A stretch of 64,000 bases of DNA. It comes from Xestospongia bergquistia (lineage: Eukaryota > Porifera > Demospongiae > Haplosclerida > Petrosiidae). The notes under the pieces were generated by a model. That model did not search any database, was not told the DNA's origin, and worked only from the letters and a program-made list of their open reading frames with translations. The translations under genes were made by a program, and so were the position numbers. Shown here one piece after another: positions 38,685 to 64,000 of this stretch. The stretch is taken from the NCBI GenBank assembly GCA_963965975.1, contig OZ014413.1, positions 2,800,001-2,864,000 of the forward strand. Reading direction: 5' to 3'. Within the stretch, counting starts at the first letter, position 1. Every line of letters begins with the position of its first letter.

Positions 38685-41600
38685 CTAGAAAAAATAAATA
38701 ATTGTAAGTATAATATAAAGTTATAGCATTGCTCTGATATAGGATCTATATAGTTATTTACTAATGTAATATACATAGCTTATACTTTAGCATTGACTTA
38801 CAGGCAAGGGTAAGAGAATCAGAAGTAATATTGCGACATGTAGTCCTTAATGTTGATACTGATGACAAACTCCTTGGATTACCTACAAATGTAATGAGAC
38901 ATCATTAGAACAAGAAATATGCACAGTTATCTTATGTTATCAGGGTATGTCCTAATGCTTTATCAATACATATATATATATATATATATATATATATATA
39001 TTGTATATATATATATATATATATATATATATATATATATATATATATATATATATATATATATAATATGGATATATAAAATATATATATATATATAATA
39101 TATAATACATATGGATACAATTTTAACTATAAATTCTTAGACAAAATCTTAACTAAACCGTGAAATAATGTAAGACACATTCACAATATCTTTAATTAAA
39201 GTAATACTATAATTTTTAACTTTTTCAAGGAAGAATTGGAAAGTTTTAACAACGTGTTTATTTCCAACTTACTACATTGAATTGTGACATCTTCAGAATG
39301 ACTACATCCTTGATAAGAACTAGTAGGACAACTCTGACATGAACCCAAACAAGAAAAACTACTACTACAAGCTAAGTTACTCATCCAAATATGTTGAGAT
39401 GAACTACCAGACCTATAACAAATATAGTATACTTCTAATATAATCTATTGTACTAAACATACAAAGGAAGATGATTATAATTTGTATAGTTTGAATATCC
39501 CAGTTGTTTACAGAGAACAAGTGCATCATTAGAATCAAATCCATCATCACATATTGTTCCCCACTGTCCATTACAATAGACCTCCACACGTCCTTCGTTA
39601 GAATAATTTCCTCCCTGAAGACGTATCATACCAGAGAAAGGATTGCTGTTCCAGATCCTTGTGGAATCTAAATTACAATTGAATTAGATGTTATACGATA
39701 ATAATAACATTAAAACTCACAACAGGACACAGTAGTATCATAAGAGTTAGTGTTAGTACATCCACTATCAATGATAGTAGAGTAAGAACACTGTAGGATA
39801 GTTAGATAGTCATTGTTATGACAATTAACATCATTCAGTAACATTGGGCTGTAGTCAGTGCCATAACTGAAATATTACCAAATAATTATTTATGTCTCAA
39901 AAGACAATTTTATGAAACTAACCTCACTAATCCAGCTCTAGAGTAACTTGATGCTCCAGTATATCCCAATTGATGACAGATAACATTAGCTTCATATTGA
40001 CTGTAGTAAATGTCATCACAGATATTACCCCATTGTCCATTGATATAGATCTGTACTATACCAGAATAATAGGAGGATAAGGTATATCCATTACGATAAA
40101 GACGTGTAGTACCAAAACCAATATGGCTAGAAGAAGCTAAATTAAGAAAATTGTTAAAAACTGATGATGTTAATAGGGTTAATTAAAATCTAAATTCAAG
40201 TGCTTGAAAATTATTAACCATCCAATGTAAAAAAATATTCCTTACAAATTATTCCAGAACAAGTAGTCTTTGAATTTGAAGATTTTGAATATGAACTGTT
40301 GTAAACTAAAGAATACAATTATGATAATGAGTAAAACCTAAGTAATTAGATTGTTCAACAAATTGTGCAAATTGCTTTTTATAATAACTTACTACATGTG
40401 ACAGTAATATCTTCATAGTGGTTACAACTAGTTATTGAACTTGATGGACAGGAATTTCTAGTACCATAACATGTGTCAGAGAAAGAACTAGACATGTATG
40501 TACTCCAAATTGGTTGATTAGAATTACCAGAGCTAAATAATTAAAAAATTGTGTAACCAAAACATTGAAGCTTTATGTTTTAAAATGACTTTAAATATTA
40601 GATTTTTTTCTTACATTACAAGGTGATCATAATTATAGTAATAATTATATCCCAGTTGTTTACAGATAGTTTGAGCATCAGTAGAACCAAATCCATTATT
40701 ACATATTGTTCCCCACTGTCCATTACAATAGACCTCAACACTTCCTTCATTAGAATAATTTCCTCCTTGAAGACGTATCATACCAGGGAATGGATTACTG
40801 TTCCAGATCCTAATGATATCTGTAAAAAATTTAATAAATGGTAAAGAAAATTTAAATACTTACAGCAGTACACAGTAGCATCATTAGAGTTAGTAATAGT
40901 ACATCCACTATCAATGTCTGTGTCAAAATAACACTGAAATATAGTGAGGTAGTTCCTACTAGCACAGGTGAGGTCATCCATTTTCATTGAAAGAGTGTCA
41001 GTCCCATAACTAAACAGAGATTTTTAAAGCTTTAGTTACAAATAGACTTATAAGTTCTTACCTCACTAATCCAGCTCTAGAGTAACTTGATGCTCCAGCA
41101 TATCCCAATTGATGACAGACGACATTAGCTTCAGTAGAATTGTAGTGGTAATCATCACAAATATTACCCCATCCATTATTGTAATAGACCCTCACAATAC
41201 CATAGTAATAAGATGATGAGACATACCCATTACGATATAAAATTATAGCACCATTTTGAGCAAAATCAGCTAAACGATAAAATATTAACATAAGCTACTA
41301 GCTAAACTGAATGATTAGCATATATAGTCAATACACATGTTTAAAAATCTTGTAACATTAACCTAATATAATAATATAATTACTTACAAATTAATCCAGA
41401 ACAAGTAGTATTTGAATTAGAAGGCTTTGAATGTGAACTGCTGTAAACTAAACAGTTAATAATAATTAATAATTATGTGTAAAACTAAGTAATTATATCA
41501 TTTAACAAATTGTGCATATTGGTTGATGTAACAACTTACTACATGTGACAGTTACATCCTCAGAGTGAGTACAATTAGTTATTGAAGTTGATGGACAGGA

Positions 41601-64000: not shown

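What the first reader, a model, noticed from the sequence alone, without database searches (positions are those of the whole stretch)
39273..64000. At least 40 SRCR domains built from a phase-symmetric five-exon cassette
Every cassette is linker + A (2 exons) + B (2 exons), 759 coding bases in the standard form, with phase-1 outer junctions and internal phases 1, 2, 1, 2. Any whole number of cassettes can be added, lost or skipped without a frameshift. Twenty cassettes are in the window and the gene continues, so this may be one of the longest SRCR arrays. Such an architecture suits allele-to-allele length variation and exon-level diversity.
Basis: partly seen in the sequence, partly recalled or inferred. 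Interest (0 to 1): 0.75.

Follow-up and report, generated by a model that had tools for sequence, protein, structure and literature searches.

The report
Sixty-domain SRCR surface receptor gene
An animal genome, probably a sponge's, carries one very long gene predicted to make a cell-surface receptor with 60 similar scavenger-receptor domains, apparently lengthened in whole two-domain units; it is a striking member of a known receptor family rather than a new kind of system.

Summary
The minus strand of 39273-63964 holds 20 five-exon cassettes (100 exons, 40 SRCR domains); 19 of 20 are 759 nt and the last is 765. The gene runs past the window. With 100 kb more of the same contig it resolves into one predicted model: signal-peptide exon, 30 B-A SRCR pairs (60 domains, 29 linkers), stalk, transmembrane exon and tail; 152 exons, 23,316-nt CDS, 7,771 aa, 151 of 151 GT-AG introns, no stop. 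Similar same-strand genes adjoin it; one of them, G3, is decayed. Cassettes were copied in whole units: a nine-cassette block repeat, and two cassettes identical introns included. Divergence is under purifying selection (dN/dS 0.28), so 'diversity' is weakly supported; allelic length variation was not testable. NPxY is shared with three paralogs. Best reading: a long multivalent, cation-dependent scavenger/endocytic receptor. Sponge SRCR expansion, one- and two-domain units and seven-Cys domains are published (PMC10855680); what is new here is the length and the complete predicted anatomy.

The parts
38176..38684 (-). Last coding exon: transmembrane helix and cytoplasmic tail with PxxP, NPAY and terminal YDEI motifs, stop codon included
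   Evidence: similar tails in paralogs
38802..38882 (-). Short stalk exon (81 nt, phase 1-1)
   Evidence: similar flanks in paralogs
39273..39412 (-). A2 exon of the last SRCR domain
39273..63964 (-). Twenty cassettes (linker, B1, B2, A1, A2), 100 exons, 40 SRCR domains; the array continues to 79976 in coordinates extended past the window
44365..44569 (-). Example A1 exon (205 nt), first part of a seven-Cys SRCR domain with VEVYxxxxW
44037..44176 (-). Example A2 exon (140 nt)
43891..43950 (-). Example linker exon (60 nt, Ser/Thr-rich, one Cys)
43564..43771 (-). Example B1 exon (208 nt), first part of a six-Cys SRCR domain
43366..43511 (-). Example B2 exon (146 nt)
41270..58820 (-). Region with higher-order repeats: cassettes c15-c19 match c24-c28 (offset nine cassettes); c21 equals c24 including introns
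5468..20726 (-). Paralogous array G0 in the same window: 11 B-A pairs, the last A2 exon being below the caller's cut but covered by a translated match to the same exon of this gene

Best explanation
The window holds the 3' part (20 of 30 cassettes plus the 3' end) of one gene for a type I membrane protein. Its ectodomain is a string of 30 B-A SRCR pairs separated by 20-residue Ser/Thr-rich linkers, ahead of a short stalk, one transmembrane helix and a tail of about 136 residues. SHOWN by sequence: the continuous 152-exon reading frame, signal-like N-terminus, a single further hydrophobic segment, repeat order, whole-cassette duplications, purifying selection, and tail motifs shared with paralogs. 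INFERRED: pairs bind polyanionic or microbial surfaces through divalent cations held by the SRCR acidic clusters; many weak sites give avidity; bound particles are taken up through the NPxY/Tyr tail. Array length would set avidity and reach, and it changes by unequal exchange between near-identical cassettes; phase 1 at every domain border keeps each product in frame.
For: Gene model of 7,771 aa, no stop, 151 of 151 GT-AG introns. Membrane-like hydropathy only at aa about 9 and from aa 7,598. Signal-like exon matched upstream of G2 and G3. Tail: NPAY in this gene, G0 and G2, NPIY in G4. A domains keep Asp (29 of 30), Asp or Asn (9 and 21 of 30) and Glu (30 of 30) at positions that fit the spacing of the DMBT1 site-2 ligands D1019/D1020/E1086 (residues from passages of PMC7043408). 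VEVYxxxxW in 30 of 30 A domains, close to the VEVLxxxxW bacteria-binding motif named in a reference title of PMC5435793. In DMBT1, 8 instead of 13 domains lowers bacterial binding by 30-45% (passages). Duplications in whole cassettes. The neighbour G3, with stops in 6 of 61 exons, shows what loss of constraint looks like.
Against: No RNA or protein evidence for the full transcript. The repeat number rests on one assembly that could not be checked against reads. B domains lack the site-2 Glu in 30 of 30, and 21 of 30 A domains have Asn for D1020, a residue whose Ala mutant lost binding in DMBT1; so many domains may not bind as DMBT1 does. Low amino-acid diversity fits a structural or adhesive role as well as recognition. 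Tail motifs are short and can arise by chance.
Confidence: 0.6

Rival explanations
1. Cell-cell or cell-matrix adhesion receptor (sponge aggregation type): the long homogeneous array is an adhesive filament, and binding is to self ligands rather than microbes.
For: Low diversity between cassettes and dN/dS 0.28; TM anchor and Tyr/PxxP tail; 127 N-glycosylation sequons in the protein. SRCR proteins tied to aggregation in Geodia are recalled, not read.
Against: VEVYxxxxW in 30 of 30 A domains and partly kept site-2-like residues; many related genes, as in published expanded immune receptor families.
Confidence: 0.25
2. The stretch is expressed as several shorter transcripts, or mostly with cassettes skipped, so the 60-domain protein hardly exists.
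For: Every domain and linker is phase 1-1, so skipping stays in frame; two of the five intron classes are only 44-56 nt.
Against: No second signal-like or TM-like segment inside the 7,771-aa frame; 149 of 149 array exons open.
Confidence: 0.1
3. The repeat number is an assembly artefact (expanded or collapsed near-identical units).
For: c21 and c24 are identical over 1,264 bp; a 99.9% identical 3.09-kb duplication in G3.
Against: Other cassette pairs differ by substitutions and indels (spacings 1202-1264 bp in the window; identities); the same layout recurs in G0, G2 and G4.
Confidence: 0.05

Closest known systems
Amphimedon queenslandica SRCR superfamily genes, incl. 'Group C' seven-cysteine SRCR domains (PMC10855680; abstract, results 2.1-2.5, 2.7 and the start of 2.6 read, passages of the rest)
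   Same: Tandem clusters, replication units of one or two SRCR domains, multi-exon domains, a seven-Cys domain class found mainly in the sponge; a figure legend marks signal peptides and TM segments in the dissected genes.
   Different: The dissected subcluster has 2-6 domains per gene and mostly three exons per domain; here 8 to 60 domains, two exons per domain, strict B-A pairs plus a linker exon.
DMBT1/SALSA/gp340 (PMC7043408, PMC4851238, PMC5435793; passages read)
   Same: Long SRCR array with interspersed linker domains, VEV....W motif, array length changed by whole units.
   Different: DMBT1 is secreted, has CUB and ZP domains and 7-20 SRCR domains; this protein is predicted to be membrane-bound, with pairs instead of single units.
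CD163/WC1 multi-SRCR transmembrane receptors (properties recalled)
   Same: Type I TM receptors with tandem SRCR domains; CD163 chains are the best solved matches for both A and B.
   Different: CD163 shows nine matched stretches and group B domains (recalled); the domains here have six or seven Cys and two exons each.
SRCR expansions of Stylissa carteri (2,166 domains; PMC4772301) and Halichondria panicea (more than 600 SRCR genes in the transcriptome; PMC8242945); passages read
   Same: Sponges with very large SRCR repertoires.
   Different: Counts and domain partners only in the passages read; no array anatomy.

Membership tests
SRCR superfamily (PF00530) | Domain matches the Pfam SRCR model above the curated cut-off | tested here: met
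   116.9 bits against 26.1, two stretches in one B+A+linker peptide
SRCR group A | Six conserved cysteines | tested here: met
   B domains: six Cys columns, each in 29-30 of 30; an extra Cys in 12 of 30. A domains have seven
SRCR group A | Domain encoded by more than one exon (rule recalled) | tested here: met
   Two exons per domain in the model
SRCR group B | Eight conserved cysteines (in one exon: recalled) | tested here: not met
   Six (B) or seven (A) Cys, two exons
Sponge 'Group C' SRCR (PMC10855680) | Seven conserved cysteines: the six shared plus one extra | tested here: inconclusive
   A domains have seven Cys in 30 of 30, but the position of the published extra Cys is in a figure that is not held
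DMBT1 family | CUB and zona pellucida domains after the array, secreted | tested here: not met
   Stalk, TM and tail instead; three Pfam matches of the C-terminus, all below their cut-offs and none CUB or ZP
Transmembrane scavenger/endocytic receptor | Signal peptide, single TM, endocytic motif | tested here: met
   At the level of hydropathy and motifs only
Transmembrane scavenger/endocytic receptor | Binds and internalises polyanionic or microbial ligands | not testable with these tools
   needs protein or cells

The most novel reading that the evidence does not exclude
The locus is a length-tunable avidity receptor: near-identical in-frame cassettes make the number of B-A pairs mutate often, so that individuals differ in receptor length. 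The two domains of a pair also keep complementary parts of the SRCR cation surface: A keeps the site-2 Glu (30 of 30) and first Asp (29 of 30); B keeps the Asp pair (30 of 30) and a site-3-like Asp (29 of 30) but no Glu. The pair, not the single domain, would then be the binding unit, which could explain why B-A order is unbroken in 66 of 66 cassettes.
Probability: 0.22. Interest if true: 0.65.

Novelty: new member of a known kind. Interest (0 to 1): 0.45.

Why it matters
If the model is right, this is a membrane receptor with 60 SRCR domains, three times the upper DMBT1 estimate cited in PMC4851238. Neighbouring paralogs offer a natural series (8, 22, 42 and 60 predicted domains) for asking whether array length sets binding strength, and whether early animals vary receptor length between individuals. 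The array, near-identical in its middle and divergent towards its ends, also shows how such genes grow.

Tried and rejected
Relatives or other individuals' copies in genome contigs and viral contigs: none (0 confirmed of 45 and of 5 pattern matches). Diversifying selection: not supported; dN/dS 0.27-0.56 across divergence bins, 0.56 being the youngest 19 of 435 pairs. Plus-strand array exons: 0 in 164 kb. Structure prediction was not run: it accepts only proteins read letter for letter from DNA, and every domain here is spliced from two exons. A megablast list meant to map duplication breakpoints gave one long alignment each for G1, G3 and G4 and none for G0, so breakpoints were not located. 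Splice sites of six G1 B1 exons beyond the window had the poorest caller scores (9) and may be misplaced by a few codons. A metal-site comparison by structure was not made; the mapping is by residue spacing. The tree left out G3 and used only B1, B2 and A1; the dN/dS used only G1.

Full report
What was given. The window is G000:C3:2800001-2864000 of an unnamed 146.5-Mb, 21-contig genome. I fetched 100 kb more downstream and use 'extended' coordinates, counted on from the window.

On the minus strand one cassette was delimited by splice sites and gave exons of 205, 140, 60, 208 and 146 nt, which sum to 759. An exon caller seeded with these five exons, plus the last A2 exon set by hand, gives 100 array exons in the window: 20 cassettes, 19 of 759 nt and one of 765. 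All outer junctions are phase 1 and the inner phases alternate as stated. In the called frame 149 of 149 array exons of the whole gene are open; in the shifted frames 1 and 5 are; random intron pieces are open 5.4% of the time. The caller penalised stops, so the 149 is not fully independent, but exon lengths are nearly constant: A1 205 in 30 of 30, B2 146 in 30 of 30, linker 60 in 29 of 29, B1 208 in 22 of 30.

The whole gene. From 86268 (extended) to 38176 the model has 152 exons and a 23,316-nt CDS for 7,771 aa. It begins with a 76-nt signal-peptide exon ending in phase 1; similar signal-like sequence lies upstream of paralogs G2 and G3. Then come 30 B-A pairs with 29 linkers, an 81-nt stalk exon, and a last exon with the TM helix and tail. 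Membrane-like hydropathy appears only at the start and from about aa 7,598, so no hidden gene boundary is visible in the array. The first and largest intron (6.2 kb) carries pieces of a retrotransposon (read by eye).

Neighbours. The same caller found arrays at 5468-20726 (G0, 11 pairs), 92112-96967 (G2, 4), 102429-119451 (G3) and 123716-157270 (G4, 21), all on the minus strand, none on the plus strand. The last A2 exon of each fell below the caller's cut; translated matches to the same exon of this gene cover the place in G0, G2 and G4, so domain counts of 22, 8 and 42 assume it. G3 has stops in 6 of 61 exons and two order breaks; G0, G1, G2 and G4 have none. A tail search of the own genome gave 62 matches at E 0.01 or better, exon pieces and weak ones included; by my reading of that list, ten minus-strand places lie between 2.72 and 2.98 Mb on C3. 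SRCR matches occur on many contigs; the lists are capped and are lower bounds.

How the array grew. Whole-cassette comparison of the 30 pairs, introns included, gives c21 = c24 at 100%, c17 and c26 at 99.84%, and c15-c19 against c24-c28 (offset nine) at 99.4-99.8%; one 7.4-kb alignment runs at 98.1% with offset 11,280. The last two cassettes and c4-c8 have no partner above 0.89; c1-c3 resemble each other at 0.95-0.98. The last cassette of this gene groups with the last cassettes of G0, G2 and G4 rather than with its own array. Nearest neighbours are within the same gene for 26 of 30 (G1), 19 of 21 (G4), 8 of 11 (G0) and 1 of 4 (G2) cassettes (G3 left out). This is what unequal exchange within arrays, with the 3' end held by position, would leave; gene conversion is not excluded, and breakpoints were not located.

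Whole cassettes, not half. Single domains and linkers are phase 1-1 too, so phase alone does not explain the unit. The B-A order is unbroken in 66 of 66 cassettes of the four intact arrays. In the one cassette compared, A and B exons share at best 42 bp at 76%, so exchange between them is unlikely; a functional pair would give the same result, and the data do not separate the two.

Selection. Over 435 cassette pairs of this gene mean dN is 0.079 and dS 0.280, ratio 0.28; the youngest 19 pairs have 0.56. Coding DNA is more alike than whole cassettes, 0.897 against 0.847.

Domain chemistry. B domains have six conserved Cys, A domains seven, the linker one. PMC10855680 (section 2.7) reports a seven-Cys class in the sponge Amphimedon and suggests external disulfides for the extra Cys; here a bond from the extra A Cys to the linker Cys is an equally good guess. 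DMBT1 SRCR8 holds cations with D1019, D1020 and E1086 (site 2) and D1020, D1058, D1059 and N1081 (site 3) (passages of PMC7043408). By residue spacing, A domains keep site 2 with Asn for the second Asp in 21 of 30, and lack the site-3 Asp pair. B domains keep the first Asp pair in 30 of 30 and one site-3-like Asp in 29 of 30, but have no Glu at the site-2 place in any. B is longer there, so its alignment is less sure. This mapping is by spacing and motif, not by structure. Best solved relatives by sequence are CD163, PIT54 and CD5L.

Tail. The tail has PxxP, NPAY and Tyr-x-x-hydrophobic motifs, with YDEI near its end. NPAY or NPIY recurs in G0, G2 and G4, and G2 and G4 end with proline-rich stretches before a Tyr. 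That four genes keep NPxY argues for uptake or PTB-type signalling (motif functions recalled).

Known or new. Sponge SRCR expansion is well published (PMC10855680, sections; PMC4772301 and PMC8242945, passages). Length variation by whole SRCR units, with an effect on bacterial binding, is published for DMBT1 (PMC4851238, PMC5435793, passages). Four searches listed no paper that I recognised as describing an array of this length; they cover open-licence papers only, and I opened six papers in part. The sponge assignment is inference from SRCR number and the seven-Cys class. So: a known kind, an extreme member, with a testable pair hypothesis.

Noticed in passing
window 27520-32130 (-) and 1-2292: A single 1,537-aa open frame with an N-terminal DnaJ domain (Pfam 2.5e-18) lies between two SRCR genes; 1-2292 is a 95.7% copy of part of it, so it seems to be duplicated along with the receptors.
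   Followed up: partly
extended 80652-83846 (+), in L010: Pieces of a retrotransposon (zinc-knuckle, reverse-transcriptase-like and integrase-like frames, by eye) in the first intron of the 60-domain gene.
   Followed up: no
extended 102429-119451 (L012-L014): Decayed SRCR array G3: stops in 6 of 61 exons, two order breaks and a 99.9% identical 3.09-kb duplication near its 3' end.
   Followed up: partly
39273-79976 (extended), cassettes c1-c30: N-glycosylation sequons are 0-3 per cassette in c1-c8, 5-6 in c9-c28 and 3 and 2 in c29-c30, so the membrane-distal end looks far less glycosylated.
   Followed up: no
B domains, alignment column 113: 12 of 30 B domains carry an extra Cys where the others have Tyr (17) or Asn (1), giving an odd Cys count in those domains.
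   Followed up: no
window 35098-35499 (+): Open frame with a PHD-finger match just under the curated cut-off (23.4 against 24 bits).
   Followed up: no
G000:C3:5620576-5644265 (-): Another homogeneous array: 20 A1-like exons, mostly at about 1,140-bp spacing, in the capped own-genome list.
   Followed up: no
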